DNA from: a virus
Virus record (IMG/VR): IMGVR_UViG_3300021962_000030
Location: 1 to 64,000 of that record
Length of the DNA stretch: 64,000 nucleotides
Direction: 5' to 3' (one strand)
Shown one piece after another: positions 13,571 to 51,690 of this stretch. Position 1 is the stretch's first letter; each line of letters begins with the position of its first letter. A program made the translations under genes and the position numbers. The notes below the pieces were generated by a model. That model had not been told where the DNA came from. It saw nothing but the letters and a program-made list of their open reading frames with translations, and searched no databases.

Positions 13571-13843
13571 CTATTTATCCAAATTAGACTCGTATTTTTT
13601 AGTCTTTGGATTCCATTTCCTAACTTCACCCTTTCTCAAGGGTGGAGTGTCATCATGCCTCGTTTTCCAATGTTTACCAAATTTCATTCTCATCTTTCTT
13701 TCCAAATTCTCTCTCTCCGACTCATCATCTTTTTCACGTTCCCTAGAGGACAAATATCCTGCAAAAGGTTCACTAGTTTCATACCTCATATTTCTTCGGA
13801 AATAATCAATTACGAAGTCAATTTTCTTGTCGAAATTGTCCAT
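13571..13843 (-). CDS. Small highly charged protein
   Basis: 90 residues rich in Arg, Lys and Glu (SSREREKDDESERENLERKMRMKFGKHWKTRH). It overlaps the stop of the 929-residue head protein as TGATG, so translation is coupled. Its unusual charge resembles the larger gene before it. It may be an internal head protein or a split-off piece of that gene. No family is recognised. Confidence 0.7.
   Translation of the reverse strand: MDNFDKKIDFVIDYFRRNMRYETSEPFAGYLSSREREKDDESERENLERKMRMKFGKHWKTRHDDTPPLRKGEVRKWNPKTKKYESNLDK
13572..13579 (-). promoter_or_regulatory. Late promoter GATAAATA
   Basis: It overlaps the end of the small charged gene and lies 33 bp before the ATG of the small membrane protein. 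Confidence 0.55.
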
Positions 13844-16632
13844 CAGTCCCTCGCAGAATAATACTTCTCTCTTGCCTTTGCTTCTCCCCTCTCTTTGGAA
13901 GTATGACCATGCTTGATCACTCTATCAACCTGACGATTAGCCAGTCTACGTTGAGTCTCTGAAGGAGTTTCCTTCTGACCTCTCACCTTTGGTTCTTGGC
14001 GGGATCCAGGAAACTTCGTCTCATGCTCCTTCTCTGCCCTGTGCTTGAGGTTGGTGATGCCCGCCTTAAGACGTTGCTCACGACCCTTTCTTGCCGCTGC
14101 CAGCGACTTCATAGCGGCATCTCTACGTGCCTGCTTCGCGGCATCAGGTGCTGCCCCATGCCTATCTGCTGCTGTAGACTCGCCAAGTTCTCCAAGTGCT
14201 TTTTGCTTACGAATCTTCTTAGGATTCTTGGTCTTGTCTGCAGAGTAGTTATTATCATCCTCATTATCAGGATCTACAGCACTACGATGTCTGGTGCGTC
14301 TTTCTTCATCATCCATATTTGCACGACTTCTCTTTGCTTCATCGGGAGAATATTTTCTACCGCTGTTGTACCATTCTTTACCTACATGACCTCTCTTTTC
14401 AGCATCAGCAGATGCCTCTCTACGCTTATTCTTCTGACGATTTGCTTTGAAGTCTTTCATGGTCATGCCTTCTTCAAGTTCATCTTCAAACTCAACTTCC
14501 TCTGTATTCATAGGAAGTTTGTTTTGCTGTTGCAGTCTCAACTTCTGCTTCTCAAGTTGCTGCTTCTTCATTTGCAACCTCTTCATATTCTGAAGTTGCT
14601 GCTTCCTTAGATTTTCCTGTCGCTTGTCAGCACTAGTTTGAGTTGCTCTTACATCATCATCAGCGGTTGTTTCTTCCTGATCAACAATTGCAGACTCTTT
14701 CACTTCAGGCAGTTCACTACGCTTAGTCTTAGCATAGTCACGAAGTTGCTTAGTGGTCATGGTTTTGGCCAGTTTGGCAACTGTCACAGAAGGTGCTTCC
14801 ATTTCACCCGCCTTGGTTGCATATGCCATACCCATCAGTTTTTGCTGCTTAGCAGAAACTGCTTCTTCCTTCATAGCATCAGCAACTCTTTGTGCTGCCT
14901 TTCTAATACCACGCTTCAGAGAAGTCTTTGCTCTCTGAACCTTTGGTTCTGCAGCAACCTTCAATTCTCTTGCCTTATTATATGCCTTCACGGCAAGTTT
15001 TCCAAGAATTTCTTTTGCTCTTGACTTGACACTTCTCTTTTTGGGGCCCTCTGTATCATGACCATAAGTTACTGTTGCCTCAATAAGTGCTTCGCTTGCA
15101 AGGTCAAGATCATATCCTTCAAGAACCAATTCTTCCAGAATTTGCTCAATATCAAACTCCTCTCTATTAAGTTGCTTTTTCTCAGCAGGAGTTAAAGCAC
15201 CTCTCTGTGCTCCTCTTGCTGCTTGCTTTGACTTCACCTTAGGATCATCAGACTTGTGACCATATCCATGGAGACCAGGGGAAGAAGAAGTGGTCTTACG
15301 GAAATCACCTCTTTGTGCTCTGGCAAGATTTTGTCTCTGCTTTTCTTTATTAGCATCACCAAAGGTTGGTCTGTCTGCTAGTTTGGTTGCTCTATCAGCA
15401 GCCTCACCGCCACCAGTTGACTTAGCAATCTTATTACGAATTGCGGTCTCATCATGACCACGTTTCGCCATCGCGGTTGCTTCATCAATTTCTGAGACCA
15501 GAGGATCTGGTGTAATCAAATCAACAAATTCAACATAGTCATTTCCATTTGCATCCTGAATAGTGACAGACTCTTTGGGAACACAATTCGGGACCTTTTT
15601 ACCACCCTTCTTCTTCATTCCTACTTGCTGATATCCATCCCAACAAGGATCATCACTCACTTCTTTTGCCTCAAGAACCACTCCACCAATCTCAGAAATT
15701 GCGGCAGTCACTTCCTCAGTCTTGAGGTTTGGGTTGAGGATGACTTTATTGTTTACCTTCTTTTCCTTAATTTCATTTTCACCCTCATCTTCCTTTGGAG
15801 CAACTACTTCACGAAGATCATTTCTCCAGTTTGAGAAGGCTTCCTTTCTTACTTTCTTTTCCTTCGCTGGGTTTGGTTTTACTGCCTTTCCACCGGGAGG
15901 ATTATTCTTACCAGAAACACCCCTATTTGCTTCTGCTTCGTCATGATCAAAGTCAGGATCCTCCATAGGATCATACCACCCTTTACCCTCACTTACACCA
16001 TGAGACTTATCTTTAGCAATCGCAGCAGAACGCTTTTGTCTACGATTCAAAAGATACTTATCTGTCTTATCATGGTCGCCATCATTATCAATATCCTTAT
16101 CCTCTTTGCCAACGGGATCAAGACCCTTACCAGACTTTACTTTTGCAGTTTGTTCACCACGCGATGCTTCTGCATCATATGCCTTTCCATAGTGGGTCAT
16201 TTCGACCGACTTAATATTTGGATTTGCACGAAGTTGACTAATCTTTTCGCGGGTTGCTCTTCTAACGTAACTTCTACCAGTTTCCTTATCAGTAACACGA
16301 ATCTGATATTTCTCAACTGGACCTTCCTTCTCTTCCTTAACTGGAGAGGGGTTTACCAGACCCAACTTTTCCTTAACAGCAAGTTTCTCAGGACCGGTCA
16401 TAGTTGTATGACCCATATACTGACCATATGCCTGATCTACCTTAACACCTTCTCTCTTAGAGCGATATCTAATATCATATACCGCTTGACGAACACGTTT
16501 AGCGGATGATTCTTCATCATCCTTACCCTTCTCAACATGCTTGCCAGAATCAGATCTTGACTTACCTAACTTAGGTTCAAAGACCTCTTTCATATAAACA
16601 TCAGAGATCGCATTTAGAGGATTGACGGTCAT
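13843..16632 (-). CDS. Large modular charged protein, probable internal head protein
   Basis: 929 residues, extremely rich in Lys, Arg, Glu, Gln and Ala, with little hydrophobic core. Recognisable modules: a DIDNDGDHDKTD loop (about residue 182) of EF-hand/dockerin type, GKGWYDPMED, a DPCWDGYQQVGMKKK...VPNCVPKE module, a Gln-rich coiled coil (MKRLQMKKQQLEKQKLRLQQQ region) and basic C-terminal repeats. Several (L/I)xE-type sites, as cut by T4 gp21 protease, are visible (ALIEA, VVLEA). Similar mosaics occur in cyanophage virions. A late promoter at 16664-16671 serves it. DNA-binding inside the head is inference from composition. Confidence 0.75.
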   Translation of the reverse strand: MTVNPLNAISDVYMKEVFEPKLGKSRSDSGKHVEKGKDDEESSAKRVRQAVYDIRYRSKREGVKVDQAYGQYMGHTTMTGPEKLAVKEKLGLVNPSPVKEEKEGPVEKYQIRVTDKETGRSYVRRATREKISQLRANPNIKSVEMTHYGKAYDAEASRGEQTAKVKSGKGLDPVGKEDKDIDNDGDHDKTDKYLLNRRQKRSAAIAKDKSHGVSEGKGWYDPMEDPDFDHDEAEANRGVSGKNNPPGGKAVKPNPAKEKKVRKEAFSNWRNDLREVVAPKEDEGENEIKEKKVNNKVILNPNLKTEEVTAAISEIGGVVLEAKEVSDDPCWDGYQQVGMKKKGGKKVPNCVPKESVTIQDANGNDYVEFVDLITPDPLVSEIDEATAMAKRGHDETAIRNKIAKSTGGGEAADRATKLADRPTFGDANKEKQRQNLARAQRGDFRKTTSSSPGLHGYGHKSDDPKVKSKQAARGAQRGALTPAEKKQLNREEFDIEQILEELVLEGYDLDLASEALIEATVTYGHDTEGPKKRSVKSRAKEILGKLAVKAYNKARELKVAAEPKVQRAKTSLKRGIRKAAQRVADAMKEEAVSAKQQKLMGMAYATKAGEMEAPSVTVAKLAKTMTTKQLRDYAKTKRSELPEVKESAIVDQEETTADDDVRATQTSADKRQENLRKQQLQNMKRLQMKKQQLEKQKLRLQQQNKLPMNTEEVEFEDELEEGMTMKDFKANRQKNKRREASADAEKRGHVGKEWYNSGRKYSPDEAKRSRANMDDEERRTRHRSAVDPDNEDDNNYSADKTKNPKKIRKQKALGELGESTAADRHGAAPDAAKQARRDAAMKSLAAARKGREQRLKAGITNLKHRAEKEHETKFPGSRQEPKVRGQKETPSETQRRLANRQVDRVIKHGHTSKERGEAKAREKYYSARD

Positions 16633-16646
16633 TTTTCAACGCTGTG

Positions 16647-17852
16647 CTATTTCTTCTTATACTTATTTATGAAATTTTTAATACTCTTGGTTTGAGTCAT
16701 ACGCATCAAATATTTTAGAAGAGAATCAGTTCCAACCAATCTTTTATCAGATGAGACTCCAGATTGATCGGTCCATTCAACAACATCACGAATCCAAGGT
16801 TTGAATAGAATATTATCCTCAGTCACACAAATCAAATAATTTGCACCTCTGCGAATGATCTTACCAACAAATCCAGTATTAAGGTTCTCAACAACATCCC
16901 CAACATTAAAAATATTTCCCCTGATATATTCATCTCTCAATCCATTGGAATCATATTTTGGAGCAATTTCCCACAAACTATACGACTCAGAAACCTTCAT
17001 ACTCTTTCTAAGAGTATTATAAAGTTGTTTTGTAGTTTCGTCATCCAAAGTGGAAGGAACTCCCTTTCGGAAAGTTGCAAAGTCTCCCTCTGCTGCTGCC
17101 TTCCTCAATTTAGATGCTGACATACCACTCACATCATCAGCATCCGGATCACGTTCTCCAGCAGAAACTACCTGAATATCTTTGAAGTCATACAACTTAC
17201 CATTATATTCTGTAGACAATTTCTCAAACTCTGATTGGCGATCACTTCCCACAACAATATTAACTGAAGAATAACCGTCAGCATGTGCTTGCTTGAGAAC
17301 ATCAAAAATGGTCTTTGACTTCACATCGTTCACAATTCTCTCACCATGCTTTGGATACATTTTACGCATTACTGCAATTTTAGTATCCGGATCTAATGGA
17401 TTTTTCTTTGAATCACTAGATCTAGACGGATAGATTTTATAGTCCCCCTTACCAGCAACGGTTGCAACTCTATCCAACAACTTTTCATGTCCGGTAGTTG
17501 GGGGGTTAAATCTACCGAAAGCAATAGTGAGTGTTCCCTTATCTTCAACCTCTTCTTCACCACCCTCAGGTTGCTGAGATTGTGCCTGAGGTTGCGGTGC
17601 TTGTGGGGCAGATTGTTGAACTTGAGTAGCGGCGATTTGTTGATTCGCAGATGTTCTTTCCTGAGGAGGATCCTGTCCAGGTCTCTGATTTTTATTATAA
17701 AACTTTAATTTACCACCCTCAGTTTTTGCTACAAACTCTCCGTCTTTATCATACCACCCACCATGACCATCTCCAGTCAGTCCAAGCCGTCTTGCTTGCA
17801 TAACTGCCTGTGATTTGCCTGCTTCGGAAAGAAATCGGGAAAAACTTTTCAT
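16647..17852 (-). CDS. HIGH-type nucleotidyltransferase with capsid-targeting-like N-terminus
   Basis: 401 residues. Residues 1-11 (MKSFSRFLSEA) closely resemble the T4 internal-protein capsid-targeting sequence (MKTYQEFIAEA) and contain LSE, a fit to the gp21 cleavage rule (L/I)xE. A conserved patch GDGHGGWYDKDGEF follows, then a Pro/Gln-rich linker (61-98). The cytidylyltransferase-like domain spans about 105-285: GRFNPPTTGH (HIGH-type) and GMSASKLR (ISSTxxR-type). The C-terminal region holds a KOW-like IFNVGDVVENLNTGFVGKI segment. Nucleotidyl transfer to a small molecule or protein is expected; the substrate is unknown. It has its own late promoter (17873-17880) and follows a ligase-like gene. 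Confidence 0.85.
   Translation of the reverse strand: MKSFSRFLSEAGKSQAVMQARRLGLTGDGHGGWYDKDGEFVAKTEGGKLKFYNKNQRPGQDPPQERTSANQQIAATQVQQSAPQAPQPQAQSQQPEGGEEEVEDKGTLTIAFGRFNPPTTGHEKLLDRVATVAGKGDYKIYPSRSSDSKKNPLDPDTKIAVMRKMYPKHGERIVNDVKSKTIFDVLKQAHADGYSSVNIVVGSDRQSEFEKLSTEYNGKLYDFKDIQVVSAGERDPDADDVSGMSASKLRKAAAEGDFATFRKGVPSTLDDETTKQLYNTLRKSMKVSESYSLWEIAPKYDSNGLRDEYIRGNIFNVGDVVENLNTGFVGKIIRRGANYLICVTEDNILFKPWIRDVVEWTDQSGVSSDKRLVGTDSLLKYLMRMTQTKSIKNFINKYKKK
16664..16671 (-). promoter_or_regulatory. Late promoter CATAAATA
   Basis: A one-base variant of TATAAATA inside the end of the nucleotidyltransferase gene, 31 bp before the 929-residue head protein. Confidence 0.5.
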
Positions 17853-17872
17853 ATTTATAATTCTTGCATTTT

Positions 17873-17880
17873 TATTTATA
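17873..17880 (-). promoter_or_regulatory. Late promoter TATAAATA
   Basis: An exact match 20 bp before the nucleotidyltransferase ATG, leaving a leader of roughly 15 bases. Confidence 0.7.
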
Positions 17881-17882
17881 TT

Positions 17883-19076
17883 TCAATCAGATGACCAATT
17901 TTTATCTGCGGTAAAGTTTGCTCGCGAAAATTCAAGTCTATCAACAAGTTTTAAGGCAGATCCAGATTTGATTGCAACAAATCCCTCTGGCGCAGTAACT
18001 TTGTATCCATCACCAGTTCTCAGGAATGTTCCAAAGTCCTTCACCATTTCAAGTTTACGAATTACAATATTTTTTGCCTTCTGCAAATTAATATAAGAAG
18101 CGACTGTAAAATATACAGATCTGCTATTCTTGGTCAAGAAGGTTAATCCATCTGCCTTAATCTTTGCATATTTATCTCTAGCAGCAGGAGTTTTTTTACT
18201 ACCAATCTCCTTATCCAAAAGTGAAGAATAGTAAGTCTTGAATCCTTCAGAAACTTTTTTCACATTAGTGATAGGGTTGCCAGACCGAATGTATGTATTG
18301 AAATATTGCTTAAACAAAGTGGATAGTAAGAATTTACCATCACCAGTCTCACCCAAAATATCTAAAAATGCAGATGCTTGCTTCAAAGATCCAGTCGCCA
18401 TATTTACGGCAGACTTATATTTTTGATGCTCAGTTGGTGAAAAATTAGCAGCGCCGGAAGCATCACTAAATGATGCTGTTGCAGCATAAACATCAGGACA
18501 ATCTTGGAATTTAGAAATGTCCACACCAAAGGATGCATTCATACTTTCCAAAGATGATCCACTATATTCAGTATGAAAAACAATTCCAACTTTTGCCCTT
18601 GAGATTTTAGATCCAAGTTTCGAATCAACCGGGACAGTATATACAATAGTATTTGGTTGGAAACTATGAACTCGTTCTCCAGCAATTGTCTTAATACTCA
18701 CATCATCCGTGAAAAGAAGGTCTCCCTGAATTACATTTGTAATTCCAAGTTTGGGAAGATGCTCTAGACATGCCTTTAGTTTAGATGCTAGTTGCCCAGA
18801 ATAATTTTGATCTATATCGCCGGAAGTAAACATCAACTTCGGATTTGTTTTTGCAAAAACAGATTTTGTTCCAACAAAAAAGCATCCTGTGACAGGTTCA
18901 ATTCCACAGATTACGGCAGGTGCTCCATCCCACTTTGTTGTGATGCGGATAGAAGATCTTGGTTCCGTGAGCATAGTTCCAAGCTCATTTAAAAATGTAA
19001 TTGCATTTTTTCCGCCAGCAGAACCATGATTTAAAATATCATCTTCAAGGTGTTCAAGGTGAGTGTTTTTTGCCAT
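17883..19076 (-). CDS. ATP-dependent ligase-like protein (KxDG)
   Basis: 397 residues. K48-W49-D50-G51 matches motif I of covalent nucleotidyltransferases (DNA/RNA ligases, capping enzymes). VIQGDLLF (about 115-122) fits motif III, TIVYTVPVD motif IIIa, PEGFVAIK (about 362-369) motif IV and LKLVDR motif V. A helical stretch of about 150 residues is inserted between IIIa and IV, longer than in classical ligases. It starts within the stop of the upstream nuclease-like gene (TGATG) and precedes the HIGH-type nucleotidyltransferase. A role in sealing nucleic acid is inferred from motifs only. It belongs to a phage family not well characterised. Confidence 0.7.
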   Translation of the reverse strand: MAKNTHLEHLEDDILNHGSAGGKNAITFLNELGTMLTEPRSSIRITTKWDGAPAVICGIEPVTGCFFVGTKSVFAKTNPKLMFTSGDIDQNYSGQLASKLKACLEHLPKLGITNVIQGDLLFTDDVSIKTIAGERVHSFQPNTIVYTVPVDSKLGSKISRAKVGIVFHTEYSGSSLESMNASFGVDISKFQDCPDVYAATASFSDASGAANFSPTEHQKYKSAVNMATGSLKQASAFLDILGETGDGKFLLSTLFKQYFNTYIRSGNPITNVKKVSEGFKTYYSSLLDKEIGSKKTPAARDKYAKIKADGLTFLTKNSRSVYFTVASYINLQKAKNIVIRKLEMVKDFGTFLRTGDGYKVTAPEGFVAIKSGSALKLVDRLEFSRANFTADKNWSSD

Positions 19077-20380
19077 CAGTTAATAAGTCTCCTAATATTT
19101 GCAAACTGTCCTTTCAATAGGTGCTTTAGTTCCGGTGCGATTGTGGCAAAGAATTGTGGTTGAGAATGGAAATCCCCCTTGTATCGAAGTTCCACACAAA
19201 GAAGTCTAAATTCTCCCTTGAAAACATCAAAGAAAACCTTGGCAGCATCTGCCTTTTCCGTCTTGTCTGTATCCAGTTTAATATGGGCAGACTCCTTTGA
19301 CAGGGCTGCTAGGACACATTGAACACTGTCTATCCCGATGGCATCGCCAGATCCCATACTGATATTTCCTTTTTTACATTCACCAACACCAGTGACCAAC
19401 ACAAATTCAAATTTGTTCTGAACTAGATCCTCCAGTGTATCCTGCAACCTACTCTTAAGAACAAGATTGATTAGAGAATCTGCGAATAAATCCGCATGTT
19501 CATCCATAATGTCAAGGAAACCTTTATATAAAGGATTGACTGTATTACCAATGCTCTGCAACTTCTTATTCACATAGTCTCGCATATCATTATGCGCTTT
19601 GGACTCGGAAGCAACTAATGATGGATCATCGCTAATTGCACGAACATCCTTAATATTAATCAGGAACACATATTCAGTTTTATTTGCCTTTCTTCTTGGA
19701 ACCTTCGCATTCCACAATTGCTCATCAGTTGCAGTATTCCAATTATCCACACGATCAATCTTACCAATCAATTTTAATGGACCATCTTCCTTTGCTTCGC
19801 GGATCACACCTGCAAAGAATTTTTGTCTATGCGCCAACAATTCAGTCTTCACAGTATTAAACTTAGTGCCCTCCATCAGGGTGTCAAACGCCTTGTTAAT
19901 AATTGTTGGATCTTGTGCTGTCGATTTTGGTTTCTTCTTCAGCGAAATGCCAACATAATGATCAGTTCCGTATCTAAAAATAACATCGGATGAATTATAA
20001 TCTGCCATTCCAAAAGCATTAATCTTAAACTTCTGAACCTCTGTTGGCCAACGAGTTCCAGTTAAAAATACTTTGGTTGGACTTGCTGCTGAAATAGTAT
20101 CATAAGCATCTGTCTTTAGATATGAGCGAATTGCTTTCATCGCTGACATACCAACAAGTAGATCAGTATATACTTGATCAGTATTGCTGCCATCGAGTCT
20201 CATCTTCTTGAGGAAATCGTTCTTAACGTTTCCAATTCCCTCAACATTAGTTCCTTCAACATTTGCAATCACATCATTAAGTAATGCTTGCAGTTTGTTT
20301 GTGTCTCTGGCAGCTGCGTTTATTTCGGTGTCACTAATGAAGGCAACTCCAGCCAACATTCCTTCAGATGGTTCAGCCAT
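19076..20380 (-). CDS. PD-(D/E)xK-nuclease-like protein
   Basis: 434 residues. SSDVIF (D132) followed 14 residues later by GISLKKK (S146-L147-K148) resembles the D...(E/S)xK core of restriction-type nucleases, in the SLK variant. GTRWPTEVQKF before it is a plausible start of the fold. The rest is mixed alpha/beta without recognisable domains. It opens the late cassette nuclease-like, ligase-like, nucleotidyltransferase, head protein, with a late promoter variant (20402-20409) 21 bp upstream. The nuclease assignment is moderate and rests on one motif pair. Confidence 0.55.
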   Translation of the reverse strand: MAEPSEGMLAGVAFISDTEINAAARDTNKLQALLNDVIANVEGTNVEGIGNVKNDFLKKMRLDGSNTDQVYTDLLVGMSAMKAIRSYLKTDAYDTISAASPTKVFLTGTRWPTEVQKFKINAFGMADYNSSDVIFRYGTDHYVGISLKKKPKSTAQDPTIINKAFDTLMEGTKFNTVKTELLAHRQKFFAGVIREAKEDGPLKLIGKIDRVDNWNTATDEQLWNAKVPRRKANKTEYVFLINIKDVRAISDDPSLVASESKAHNDMRDYVNKKLQSIGNTVNPLYKGFLDIMDEHADLFADSLINLVLKSRLQDTLEDLVQNKFEFVLVTGVGECKKGNISMGSGDAIGIDSVQCVLAALSKESAHIKLDTDKTEKADAAKVFFDVFKGEFRLLCVELRYKGDFHSQPQFFATIAPELKHLLKGQFANIRRLIN

Positions 20381-20401: not shown

Positions 20402-20409
20402 TATTTATT
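20402..20409 (-). promoter_or_regulatory. Late promoter AATAAATA
   Basis: A one-base variant 21 bp before the nuclease-like gene, right after the terminator of the MazG operon. Confidence 0.5.
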
Positions 20410-20415
20410 TAATCA

Positions 20416-20442
20416 TAAAAAAACCCCCCGGAGGGGGGGGTG
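20416..20442 (-). terminator. Rho-independent terminator
   Basis: Minus strand CCCCCC, short loop, GGGGGG, seven T. It separates the replication operon from the late cassette. Confidence 0.85.
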
Positions 20443-35564: not shown

Positions 35565-36080
35565 TCAATCTTTCTCAAAGGTAAATGTCTTATTCTTAAC
35601 TTTGGTGTCAAATTCACCAGTTCTCCCCGGTCTCATTTTTCCCTGAGGAACTCTCTTACCCTTACCTGGCCATGCTCCTTTTTTGGTGCCAACAAGATCA
35701 CCAGATCCGCTGGGTTTCTTCTGAACCAGGACAGCATCTTGCCCATGCTTTGCGCCCAGCTTTTCAACTGCCTTCTTAAACTTCCTCTTACCCTTCTTTC
35801 CAGAGCTAATGATGTGCGACTTTTCACCAACCTTTCTTCCTTCTGGGGATCCATCATCCTCAGTATATCTTCCCTGTGCCTTTGTTGGTCCTGGGAGTCC
35901 AGCGCCCTTAATGTCCTTCTCCATTTGACGAGAACGTGCTTTATTCTCTTTCTTGGATTTGTCTCCACGTTCAGCAGAAACAATTGCCAATCCACCTTTC
36001 TTTGATTTCTGGACAACTCTGGAAAGTCCCCCCTCTTGGAGGGACCTACACTCAGTCATGAACTCCCTAAAAGTCTTCAT
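35565..36080 (-). CDS. Basic protein with capsid-targeting-like N-terminus
   Basis: 171 residues from MKTFREFMTECRSLQEGG, which resembles T4 internal-protein targeting sequences. E10 and LQE (14-16) are candidate gp21 cleavage points. The remainder is Lys/Gly-rich with SERGDKSKKENKARSRQMEKD, ERGRKVGEKSH-like and KFKKAVEKLGAKHGQDAVLVQKK, suggesting DNA association in the head. A related arrangement occurs in cyanophage virion proteins. A late promoter variant (36109-36116) precedes it. An in-frame ATG 17 codons upstream is less likely because the T4-like motif starts here. Confidence 0.72.
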   Translation of the reverse strand: MKTFREFMTECRSLQEGGLSRVVQKSKKGGLAIVSAERGDKSKKENKARSRQMEKDIKGAGLPGPTKAQGRYTEDDGSPEGRKVGEKSHIISSGKKGKRKFKKAVEKLGAKHGQDAVLVQKKPSGSGDLVGTKKGAWPGKGKRVPQGKMRPGRTGEFDTKVKNKTFTFEKD

Positions 36081-47822: not shown

Positions 47823-49244
47823 TCACATGAGGTTCTTAACTGCAACGCGACGGTAGTAGCGGTTTGCATTAACCTGAAGACGGCCGAGACCAGCGTTAGT
47901 GCCTTCTGCAAATGGGTTTGCAACAAGACCATAACGGGTCTTAAAGCCAATCTTGGGCTGGAAGGTGTCCTCACCAACGGCACGAACCATTTGGAGGGGA
48001 ACATAAGGACAGTAGAACAGTCCAGCATCATAAGGGGAAGAACCCTTATAACCGATGACGTAATACTGGTTGCCAGAAGCGGTATTACCAGCAGCAAGGT
48101 TTGCCGAATAAGGATCGATGTATACGCGATACTTACCAAGCAGAATACCTGCGAAGGTGTTGCCAGTGTCATCAACGTTGAGGTTTGCGTTCAGTGCAGG
48201 GGTGTAATCAAGAACACCAGCCATGCTCAGAGCAGAAGCAACGTCTGCAGAGCAAAGGATGATGTTGCCCTTTCCACGACGAGTGCGCTGTGCAATTCTG
48301 TTTGCATCACGCTCAATCTGGAACAGGAGACCCTTGAACTTCTCAACAGACCAACGACCGTTGGAGTCAACGTCGAGGTCAAATACGCCAGGAGTTGCGG
48401 TATTTTCTACAGCACCTTGCTCAGCAACCTTATAGATGGTTCTGATGACTTCACGGTTGATCTCAGCAAGAATCTCTGTGGAGAGAATGTTTGCGAGTTC
48501 CGCTTCAGCATTCAGACCGTGGATTGCCTTCAGGTCTTGTGCAAGCTCAAGGCTGTATTCTGCCTTCAGGGCACGTGACTTTGCAGTAACGGTGACTTTC
48601 TCAATCGAGAATGCCATCTCGTTGAATGCTGCACCAGCAGTTCCAAGGTTCTCAGAATCGCCAGTAGGCATACCCTGACCAACATTGTAGCCGAGGGAGT
48701 TTGCAGTTCCAACTGGGTTGAGAACGGATGGGTTGGTGCCAGCCTGGATGGTAGAACCAATACCAGCGTTGTTGTCAGCGAAGTCTTGGTTGATTGCAGC
48801 ACCATAAGCAGCGTTCTGACCAGAGAATACTGTATCTGCTTCGTTGAAGAATGCCTCTTGACCAGACTGATTAACGTAGCGCGAACGCATTGCGAAAATC
48901 AGACCAGTAGGACCGGACATTGGCTGCACACCAGCAAGGTCATAAGCGACCAGATTAGGCATGGAGCGACGAATGAGGCTGATCAGCACAGGGTCGAAAC
49001 CTGCGGTTGGGCTGCCACTTGTGCCACCGAAAGCACCCTGAGCACCAGCAGCGTTGCCGCTATTGGTTGGAGCTTCCATCAGGGACTGCATCGAACCATT
49101 GTCGAATGCAGATTGCTCGCGGAGGAATCTTTCTTGGTTTTCGAGCAGGACAGCGGTTACGGCTCTACGATGAGGATCGGAGATTTCTTCACCATAATTG
49201 AGAAGAGGTGCCCACTTTTCCTGCAATTGCTCGGAATGGAACAT
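47823..49244 (-). CDS. 23: Major capsid protein (T4 gp23)
   Basis: 473 residues. The N-terminal propeptide ends at SLMEA (about residues 54-58), a gp21 cleavage site, followed by a Gly/Ala-rich stretch (GGTSGSPTAGFDPVL). LIRRSMPNLVAYDLAGVQPMSGPTGLIFAMRSRY and FKTRYGLVANPFA are diagnostic for gp23. Builds the icosahedral head on the gp22 scaffold. Confidence 0.98.
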   Translation of the reverse strand: MFHSEQLQEKWAPLLNYGEEISDPHRRAVTAVLLENQERFLREQSAFDNGSMQSLMEAPTNSGNAAGAQGAFGGTSGSPTAGFDPVLISLIRRSMPNLVAYDLAGVQPMSGPTGLIFAMRSRYVNQSGQEAFFNEADTVFSGQNAAYGAAINQDFADNNAGIGSTIQAGTNPSVLNPVGTANSLGYNVGQGMPTGDSENLGTAGAAFNEMAFSIEKVTVTAKSRALKAEYSLELAQDLKAIHGLNAEAELANILSTEILAEINREVIRTIYKVAEQGAVENTATPGVFDLDVDSNGRWSVEKFKGLLFQIERDANRIAQRTRRGKGNIILCSADVASALSMAGVLDYTPALNANLNVDDTGNTFAGILLGKYRVYIDPYSANLAAGNTASGNQYYVIGYKGSSPYDAGLFYCPYVPLQMVRAVGEDTFQPKIGFKTRYGLVANPFAEGTNAGLGRLQVNANRYYRRVAVKNLM

Positions 49245-50486: not shown

Positions 50487-51137
50487 TTAGAGATTTGCCA
50501 GAAAGTCATTAAACAATTGTAGTTTATGCTCCTGCAACCTTTTTTCATCCACCAAAGTATTAATTCTTCTGGTGGTGGTTTCAGCGAGTTTTTCACGAAG
50601 GATTCCACCTTCCCAAACCCACTCTTTACCTTCCATAATTCCCTGAACAAATGCATCAGGTGCAGAAGGATCTGCTACAATATCAGCAGCAGTTGCAAGC
50701 ATAAAGTCTTCACCGACTTCCATCCAACCTTCTTTTGTTTGTCTTACGGATCCAATACCTCTTGACGAAACGCCAAGAGTTACTCCCTCTTTGAGAAGAG
50801 ACTCCGCAATTTTGCCCATAGGTGTTGATAAAATTTGTGCCTTTCCAATAAAGTTATTTCCACGTTGTTCTAGGGAAACAATCTTATGAGAAACGCGGTC
50901 AAGATTAACTGTTGGACCCTCTGGGTGTCCAAGTTCACCTAAAGCACGACCCTTGTTAATATATCCTTCAGTATAACGCTTGACCTCTCTCTCCATTACA
51001 TCGCGACGATAGACTCGATTATTACGATTCTTCTGCTCAGTTTGAAGAAATGGTCCGGTAATATAGAGGGTCTTTTTGCCGTTCACACTTTCAGTAATGA
51101 CCTTTACTGATTCAATTTCTTCTGTGATGAGTAACAT
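50487..51137 (-). CDS. 21: Prohead protease (T4 gp21)
   Basis: 216 residues from MLLITEEIESVKVIT (the ATG follows the upstream stop by one base). GELGHPEGPTVNLDRVSHKI provides the catalytic His and GVSSRGIG the catalytic Ser of the herpes/T4 prohead protease fold. It matures gp23, gp22 and internal proteins at (L/I)xE sites. Several candidate substrates in this window carry such sites near their N-termini. Confidence 0.95.
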   Translation of the reverse strand: MLLITEEIESVKVITESVNGKKTLYITGPFLQTEQKNRNNRVYRRDVMEREVKRYTEGYINKGRALGELGHPEGPTVNLDRVSHKIVSLEQRGNNFIGKAQILSTPMGKIAESLLKEGVTLGVSSRGIGSVRQTKEGWMEVGEDFMLATAADIVADPSAPDAFVQGIMEGKEWVWEGGILREKLAETTTRRINTLVDEKRLQEHKLQLFNDFLANL

Positions 51138-51138
51138 C

Positions 51139-51690
51139 TTAGGCGTCTCCTGTAACTTGAACTTGCTGAGCATAAAGAGTTCCTGATCCAGAACTTGTTC
51201 TAGATGAAATCTTGACCGATCTTCTCAGAACACCATCTGGCGCAGTAAAATCATGACCAACTGCTATAGAATTGTATGAAATTCCAATTCCAGTAGAGAA
51301 GGATCCATCATAGGATGCTCTATTGTCCACAGAAATTACTCTTTGGTGAGTAAAGTTCCATGCAGAATCAATTGTGGATGTGAACGATACATAATCGCCA
51401 ACTGCAAATACGGTTCCAGTACCTTCTGCAAAGGTTACTGTAGTAATTGCTCCGGATGAAATACCAGCAACTACCTGTGTTGCTGTATCAAGTGTCAACG
51501 TTGCAGAGGTTCCAGCAGGAATGAGATAATCAGTTACAGCAGCAGTTGGGCTGTAACCAATTGCCACATGTGCATTCTGCTGATCCGCTACAATACGAAT
51601 TGATTTTGTTTGTACTGAAATCGGAACAGATAGTGCGGGTGATGTGGTAATCGCAAAAGATGTCCCATTTCCAACTGGTCTATGCGTCAT
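51139..51690 (-). CDS. Structural protein between gp20 and gp21
   Basis: 183 residues, beta-rich and Thr/Ser/Ala/Val-rich, beginning MTHRPVGNGTSFAITTSPALSVPI. GIGISYNSIAVGHDFTAPDG near the end. Composition suits a capsid decoration or head fibre component. No family known to me; the position in the head cluster and a late promoter variant upstream support a virion role. Confidence 0.65.
   Translation of the reverse strand: MTHRPVGNGTSFAITTSPALSVPISVQTKSIRIVADQQNAHVAIGYSPTAAVTDYLIPAGTSATLTLDTATQVVAGISSGAITTVTFAEGTGTVFAVGDYVSFTSTIDSAWNFTHQRVISVDNRASYDGSFSTGIGISYNSIAVGHDFTAPDGVLRRSVKISSRTSSGSGTLYAQQVQVTGDA

What the first reader, a model, noticed from the sequence alone, without database searches (positions are those of the whole stretch)
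13843..20380. Late cassette of nuclease-like, ligase-like and nucleotidyltransferase enzymes ahead of a giant head protein
Four genes in a row (20380 to 13843) are preceded by late boxes. The first two overlap as TGATG. Their motifs are D...SLK (nuclease-like), KWDG/EGFV (ATP-dependent ligase fold) and GRFNPPTTGH (HIGH nucleotidyltransferase). Enzymes of nucleic acid breaking, joining and nucleotidyl transfer are normally early; late expression beside a head protein suggests they act during packaging or are carried in the capsid to act on the next host. I know of no described system of this composition.
Basis: partly seen in the sequence, partly recalled or inferred. Interest (0 to 1): 0.8.

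Follow-up and report, generated by a model that had tools for sequence, protein, structure and literature searches.

The report
Capsid-cargo enzyme module of marine phages
The window holds a late gene module of T4-like marine phages whose nucleotidyltransferase carries a T4-style address tag for packing into the virus head, so it is probably injected with the DNA; the two upstream genes look like a nuclease-type and a ligase-type protein, but neither activity is proven.

Summary
The four genes, the TGATG overlap and the motifs are real. Late boxes (NATAAATA) precede A, C and D; B is coupled to A. The phage is Kyanoviridae-like. Gene C is the near-universal 'cytidylyl/NMNAT-like' transferase (T4-GC190), already published as a virion protein in S-SM1, S-SZBM1, S-SCSM1 and S-CREM2. 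What I did not find in the literature searched: its N-terminus, MKSFSRFLSE^A, matches the T4 capsid-targeting sequence (IPII/IPIII MKTYQEFIAE^A) and is conserved at the positions that matter in T4 (F4, F7, E10). In S-CREM2 all five proteins with this tag are in the published virion proteome (47 of 211 others; p = 7e-4); two small tagged proteins of two other phages were not detected. Gene B (DUF6267) keeps ligase-type nucleotidyltransferase motifs among its few invariant residues, but no fold search confirms it. Gene A sits in a variable slot enriched for D...S-x-K nuclease-like motifs; one slot family matches type II restriction enzymes. The 'trio' is a mosaic: C-D is the constant pair, A and B are optional. 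'Giant head protein' is unproven, though relatives of D are virion proteins. A second tagged protein in the window resembles SAM lyases.

The parts
19076..20380 (-). Gene A, 434 aa, phrog_3060; nuclease-like motif YNSSD132...GISLK148; occupant of a variable slot
   Evidence: ORF, phrog_3060 1.4e-43, invariant residues D132, S146, L147, K148 in 45 homologues, AF2 model pLDDT 88.5, no PDB match
17883..19076 (-). Gene B, 397 aa, DUF6267; ligase-like nucleotidyltransferase motifs K48xDG, Q117xD119, E364GxV, K376
   Evidence: PF19782 1.8e-132; invariant residues among ten divergent members
16647..17852 (-). Gene C, 401 aa, HIGH-type nucleotidyltransferase (T4-GC190, cytidylyl/NMNAT-like), virion protein in related phages
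   Evidence: PF01467 2.9e-6; phrog_395 2.3e-109; virion mass spectrometry of homologues
17823..17852 (-). Codons of the capsid-targeting sequence MKSFSRFLSE; predicted gp21 cleavage before Ala11
   Evidence: T4 ipII/ipIII MKTYQEFIAE^A; conservation F4 92%, F7 87%, E10 98%, A11 81% in 172 homologues
13843..16632 (-). Gene D, 929 aa, K/E-rich protein, constant partner of C; virion-associated in relatives
   Evidence: C-D adjacency 154 times, median gap 10 nt; similarity to SCSM1_92, a virion protein
20402..20409 (-). Late box AATAAATA before gene A
20417..20438 (-). Terminator-like C/G hairpin with T-run in front of the module
   Evidence: read from the sequence
17873..17880 (-). Late box TATAAATA before gene C
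16664..16671 (-). Late box CATAAATA before gene D, inside the end of C
50487..51173 (-). gp21-type prohead protease, the expected processing enzyme
   Evidence: PF03420 6.4e-35, phrog_207
47823..49244 (-). gp23 major capsid protein; candidate cleavage site SLME^A (by eye)
   Evidence: PF07068 5e-150; sequence
35565..36080 (-). Second tagged late protein, MKTFREFMTE^C, SAM-lyase family
   Evidence: PF23780 4.7e-12; homologue is a virion protein in S-CREM2; late box 28 nt upstream

Best explanation
A late virion-cargo module of Kyanoviridae-like phages built round a constant gene pair C-D. C is an internal head protein: its first ten residues are a T4-type capsid-targeting sequence that takes it into the scaffold core of the prohead, the gp21 protease removes the tag after Glu10, and the enzyme stays with the packaged DNA and enters the next cell with it. 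D is a virion-associated protein made next to it. A (nuclease-like, from a variable slot) and B (DUF6267, ligase-like nucleotidyltransferase) are made in the same late programme and act on DNA late in infection or, for some slot proteins, from the virion. Shown here: genes, late boxes, tag conservation, statistical link of tag and virion in one phage. Shown by others: homologues of C in virions. Inferred: cleavage, injection, the enzymatic activities in this phage, and the joint task, most likely protection or repair of incoming phage DNA or counter-defence.
For: C homologues in virions of S-SM1, S-SZBM1, S-SCSM1, S-CREM2. Tag identical in register to T4 IPII/IPIII, conserved at residues 4, 7, 10, which carry targeting and processing in T4. 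Strict tag found once at starts of this genome, expected 0.02-0.11. Tag as DNA: 22 hits in 14 phage records, control 2. S-CREM2: 5 of 5 tagged proteins in virions vs 47 of 211 others, Fisher 7e-4. gp21 protease present. Late boxes. C-D constant. Slot proteins enriched for D...S-x-K (p 9e-5), one family matching type II restriction enzymes. DUF6267 invariant motif residues.
Against: No peptide evidence of cleavage after Glu10. Two tagged proteins of about 105 aa in S-SZBM1 and S-SCSM1 are not in the virion lists. The tag is lost or different in S-PM2, HTVC008M and, as MSFFKKVRTILE, in some relatives. S-SZBM1 genes 141 (DUF6267) and 142 (slot) were not detected in virions. No fold match for A or B. 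I had seen some S-CREM2 N-termini before fixing the pattern.
Confidence: 0.7

Rival explanations
1. C is an abundant late cytosolic enzyme (NAD or nucleotide metabolism) that only sticks to virion preparations; the N-terminal likeness to the T4 tag is a lineage-specific helix.
For: The authors of the S-CREM2 and S-SCSM1 papers leave carry-over open; few peptides for the transferase (3 in S-CREM2, 2 in S-SZBM1).
Against: Detected in four phages by separate groups; tag shared with T4 internal proteins and with other virion proteins of S-CREM2; residues conserved are those needed in T4.
Confidence: 0.17
2. On entry C acts as an NMN adenylyltransferase that restores NAD+ against NAD-depleting defence or tunes host metabolism.
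For: HIGH and S-x-S-x-x-R motifs conserved; homologue annotated NMNAT; phage NAD+ reconstitution is a known strategy (PMC12774641 abstract).
Against: TIGR00482 match far below its cut-off (15.6 of 112 bits); no NAMPT-family gene in this record; no solved relative by sequence.
Confidence: 0.3
3. A and B are DNA-end processing enzymes of the packaging or recombination stage, act only in the producing cell and are not carried.
For: Late boxes; next to replication genes; DUF6267 and slot protein not detected in S-SZBM1 virions; no capsid tag on A or B.
Against: The slot protein of S-SCSM1 (ORF90) is annotated as a virion protein; DUF6267 is co-located with C in most loci.
Confidence: 0.4
4. A is not a nuclease and B not a ligase: they are catalytically dead structural or DNA-binding proteins.
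For: Ser in place of Glu in A's motif; second motif V lysine missing in B; no fold match.
Against: Catalytic-type residues are among the few invariant ones; slot relatives with PD...LEVK and a REase_II match.
Confidence: 0.25

Closest known systems
T4 internal proteins (IPI-IPIII) with capsid-targeting sequence and gp21 processing
   Same: Ten-residue N-terminal tag in the same register (MKTYQEFIAE^A against MKSFSRFLSE^A), gp21 protease in the genome, late expression, virion location of homologues.
   Different: The cargo is a conserved enzyme present in most cyanomyoviruses, not a small variable basic protein; cleavage not yet shown.
Cyanophage T4-GC190 cytidylyltransferase / NMNAT-like virion protein
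   Same: Gene C is a member by sequence and position.
   Different: The tag that would explain its packaging was not described in the papers read.
T4 RNA ligase 1 and the covalent nucleotidyltransferase superfamily
   Same: Gene B keeps the order of motifs I, III, IV and V; motif IV reads EGFVAIKSGSALKL against EGYVAVMKDGSHFKI in T4 Rnl1.
   Different: Helical insert before motif IV, one motif V lysine missing, no significant profile or fold match.
PD-(D/E)XK nucleases / type II restriction enzymes
   Same: D...S-x-K in a predicted strand pair; textbook PD...LEVK in P-SSM2-type slot proteins; one slot family matches REase_II at 4.2e-12.
   Different: Gene A has Ser for Glu and matches no solved nuclease.

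Membership tests
T4-type CTS-tagged internal head proteins (gene C) | N-terminal targeting residues at 4 and 7, processing residues at 8 and 10 | tested here: met
   F4, F7, L8, E10 in gene C; conservation in 172 homologues; T4 rule from PMC9026906
T4-type CTS-tagged internal head proteins (gene C) | gp21-type protease in the same genome | tested here: met
T4-type CTS-tagged internal head proteins (gene C) | protein found in virions | tested here: met
   for homologues only, published mass spectrometry; not for this phage
T4-type CTS-tagged internal head proteins (gene C) | tag removed in the mature virion; protein ejected into the host | not testable with these tools
   needs N-terminal peptides and ejection assays
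HIGH-type nucleotidyltransferase, cyanophage T4-GC190 (gene C) | GxFxPPxxGH and S-x-[ST]-x-x-R motifs, family match | tested here: met
   PF01467 over cut-off (28 against 21 bits); conserved motif columns
NMN adenylyltransferase (gene C) | equivalog-level family match | tested here: not met
   TIGR00482 15.6 bits against a cut-off of 112; activity not testable here
DUF6267 (gene B) | PF19782 match over cut-off | tested here: met
   442.7 bits against 27
ATP-dependent ligase / covalent nucleotidyltransferase (gene B) | motifs I, III, IV, V in order and invariant | tested here: met
   K48xDG, QxD119, E364GxV, K376 invariant in ten divergent members; second motif V Lys absent
ATP-dependent ligase / covalent nucleotidyltransferase (gene B) | fold or profile similarity to a known ligase | tested here: inconclusive
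   weak model (pTM 0.57); Foldseek, Pfam and hhalign below significance
PD-(D/E)XK nuclease (gene A) | D...(D/E)-x-K motif | tested here: inconclusive
   D132...S146-L147-K148 invariant, Ser for Glu; true LEVK form only in other slot proteins
PD-(D/E)XK nuclease (gene A) | fold similarity to a solved nuclease | tested here: not met
   best Foldseek E 0.048, TM 0.13
Head protein (gene D) | capsid or scaffold domain | tested here: not met
   no such Pfam or PHROG match; relatives are virion-associated

The most novel reading that the evidence does not exclude
Kyanoviridae-like phages load a set of enzymes into the head by a T4-type address tag (transferase, SAM lyase, kinase, Cas9-like nuclease), and the module at this locus joins the constant transferase with a variable slot of restriction-enzyme-like proteins and a new ligase-like family (DUF6267): an injected kit that protects or repairs incoming DNA or strikes host defences.
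Probability: 0.25. Interest if true: 0.8.

Novelty: new variant of a known kind. Interest (0 to 1): 0.6.

Why it matters
Cyanophage virion papers have repeatedly found metabolic enzymes in particles and could not say whether they are cargo or contamination. A conserved T4-type targeting tag gives a sequence rule that can be tested at once and predicts which proteins of these abundant marine phages enter the cell with the DNA. It also gives a first functional lead for DUF6267 (matched in about 470 phage records, nearly all cyanophages) and marks a variable slot of nuclease-like proteins beside it.

Tried and rejected
Foldseek of gene A against PDB: nothing; against viral models: only uncharacterised phage proteins. 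Foldseek of gene B: no significant match, weak model. Sequence or profile search of A, B and C against PDB chains: nothing. hhalign of DUF6267 with T4 ligases: not significant. hhalign between slot families: mostly insignificant, so common descent of all slot proteins is not claimed. PADLOC for A, B and C: nothing. NAMPT in the same record, to support NAD salvage: absent. Rejected: a fixed three-enzyme system; the TATAAATA that overlaps C's ATG as its promoter.

Full report
WHAT IS THERE. On the minus strand, gene A (20380-19076), B (19076-17883), C (17852-16647) and D (16632-13843) follow each other. The record is a 154,286-base virus contig with T4-type gp21 and gp23. The neighbourhood is the gp43-uvsX-gp41-mazG-...-gp61-nrdA region of Kyanoviridae, as in S-SM2, S-PM2, S-PRM1, S-SZBM1, S-SCSM1 and P-SSM2. 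The module begins behind a C/G hairpin with a T-run and a late box. NATAAATA, the late motif described for cyanophages (PMC2984593), occurs within 70 nt of 21 of 209 predicted starts, against a mean of 5.6 for ten permuted heptamers; A, C and D have it, B is coupled to A, and gp43, uvsX, gp41 and mazG lack it.

THE GENES. A: phrog_3060, no Pfam family. B: DUF6267 (1.8e-132). C: CTP_transf_like, phrog_395. D: K/E-rich, no capsid domain. In the environmental and reference loci fetched the order A?-B?-C-D is a mosaic: C-D adjacent 154 times with median gap 10 nt, B-C 101 times with median overlap 4 nt, A-B 31 times, A-C 61 times (some loci are overlapping pieces of one contig, so counts are not independent). 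So C-D is the constant pair and the 'trio' is not obligatory. In P-SSM2 and ACG-2014f a DUF6267 gene lies elsewhere in the genome.

C IS A KNOWN VIRION PROTEIN. Sullivan et al. 2010 (PMC3037559) name T4-GC190, a putative cytidylyltransferase, among cyanophage-core proteins detected in S-SM1 virions. S-SZBM1_140 (PMC9146016), S-SCSM1 ORF91 (PMC9602691) and S-CREM2 ORF154 (PMC10665884) repeat this. In S-SCSM1 the genes on both sides (ORF90 in slot A, ORF92 and ORF93) are also annotated as virion proteins. In S-SZBM1 the next gene (139) was detected, but the DUF6267 gene (141) and the slot gene (142) were not. The S-CREM2 and S-SCSM1 papers leave open whether the enzyme is cargo or carry-over.

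A T4 CAPSID-TARGETING SEQUENCE. C begins MKSFSRFLSE^A. T4 IPII and IPIII, read from the T4 record, begin MKTYQEFIAE^A. In T4 the first ten residues of IPIII suffice for incorporation; residues 4 and 7 carry targeting, 8 and 10 processing (PMC9026906). Over 172 homologues of C, F4 (92%), F7 (87%), E10 (98%) and A11 (81%) are conserved while positions 3, 5, 6 and 9 vary. 127 of 149 distinct N-termini match a looser form, and several of the rest are long start-codon calls with the tag inside, or MSFFKKVRTILE variants. In this genome the strict pattern is expected 0.02-0.11 times at starts and found once, in C. As DNA, the tag occurs 22 times in 14 phage records and its reversed control twice; eight hits are the transferase, and the three in T4 are ipII, ipIII and the uncharacterised 61.1.

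TEST AGAINST A PROTEOME. For S-CREM2 I translated 216 proteins and compared them with the published list of 52 virion proteins. The pattern ^M..[FYL]..F[LIVMF].E finds gp6 (SAM hydrolase), gp13, gp14 (kinase), gp136 and gp154 (the transferase); all five are in virions, against 47 of 211 others (Fisher 7e-4; 4.8e-5 when 24 named structural proteins are left out). The Cas9-like gp12, also in virions, has RFASFMAE^A near residues 18-25. Limits: I had seen some of these N-termini before fixing the pattern; of the three further tag hits in S-SCSM1 and S-SZBM1 only the transferase of S-SCSM1 was detected, while two proteins of about 105 aa were not.

B. Across ten members (28-61% identity to B) the invariant residues include K48-x-D-G, Q117-x-D119, E364-G-x-V, K376 and the FFV..K region, in the order of the motifs of the ligase/capping nucleotidyltransferase superfamily (general knowledge). 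Short members lack most of the helical stretch about 210-342, so it is an insert. The second lysine of motif V is missing. Fold and profile evidence is suggestive only: PF09511 (T4 RNA ligase 1) at 0.03 in 3 of 52 members, T4 Rnl2 entries in a non-significant Foldseek list, hhalign with T4 Rnl1 covering only motif IV.

A AND ITS SLOT. The model of A is confident but matches no solved structure. The ORF just upstream of B or C in other loci falls into 20 BLAST clusters; in 7 the majority has the tight motif [TSPAC]D[IVFL]...[IVLF]S[LVH]K against 0 of 47 background clusters (p = 9e-5). P-SSM2-type slot proteins read PD...LEVK or LEIK, the textbook form, and the L082-type slot protein matches type II restriction enzymes at 4.2e-12. 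So the slot is enriched for nuclease-like proteins; for A itself, with Ser for Glu, catalysis is unproven. Some clusters in the slot are other things (an oxygenase-like family, a GIY-YIG-like enzyme, D-like proteins).

A SECOND TAGGED PROTEIN. 36080-35565 begins MKTFREFMTE^C, matches the SAM-lyase family (4.7e-12), has a late box, and its S-CREM2 homologue (53% identity from residue 1) is annotated as a virion protein. This would fit an injected anti-restriction factor, as T4 IPI is (PMC3012670).

CONCLUSION. Carriage in the capsid is well supported for C, open for A and B. The transferase in virions is not new; the targeting tag, which would explain it and predicts other cargo, was not found in the literature searched, and that library holds only open-licence papers. 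The function of C after entry, NAD-related or other, remains a guess.

Noticed in passing
35565-36080 (-): Late SAM-lyase-family protein with a T4-type capsid tag (MKTFREFMTE); its S-CREM2 homologue is a virion protein. A candidate injected anti-restriction factor.
   Followed up: partly
L273 4705-7314 (S-CREM2 gp12): Cas9-like nuclease reported in virions carries a tag-like stretch RFASFMAE^A near residues 18-25 rather than at the start.
   Followed up: no
L101 8670-11135 (S-CRM01 kinase-like protein): Begins MISFDQFLSE, the same kind of tag; a putative protein kinase was reported in S-CRM01 virions (cited in PMC10665884).
   Followed up: no
L302 467-631 (T4 gene 61.1): Uncharacterised 54-aa T4 protein begins MKTFKEFIKE, in the register of the T4 capsid-targeting sequence.
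   Followed up: no
S-SZBM1 gene 191 (record 122311-122628) and L303 716-1036 (S-SCSM1 gene 30): Tagged proteins of about 105 aa that are absent from the published virion lists; either missed by mass spectrometry or exceptions to the rule.
   Followed up: partly
L082 846-1988 and its cluster: Slot protein upstream of DUF6267 that matches type II restriction enzymes in PADLOC (4.2e-12) inside a phage genome.
   Followed up: no
L011 7992-9771 (S-PM2 p138/p139): DUF6267 is split; its C-terminal half lies in one reading frame with the transferase, a fusion or a frameshift.
   Followed up: no
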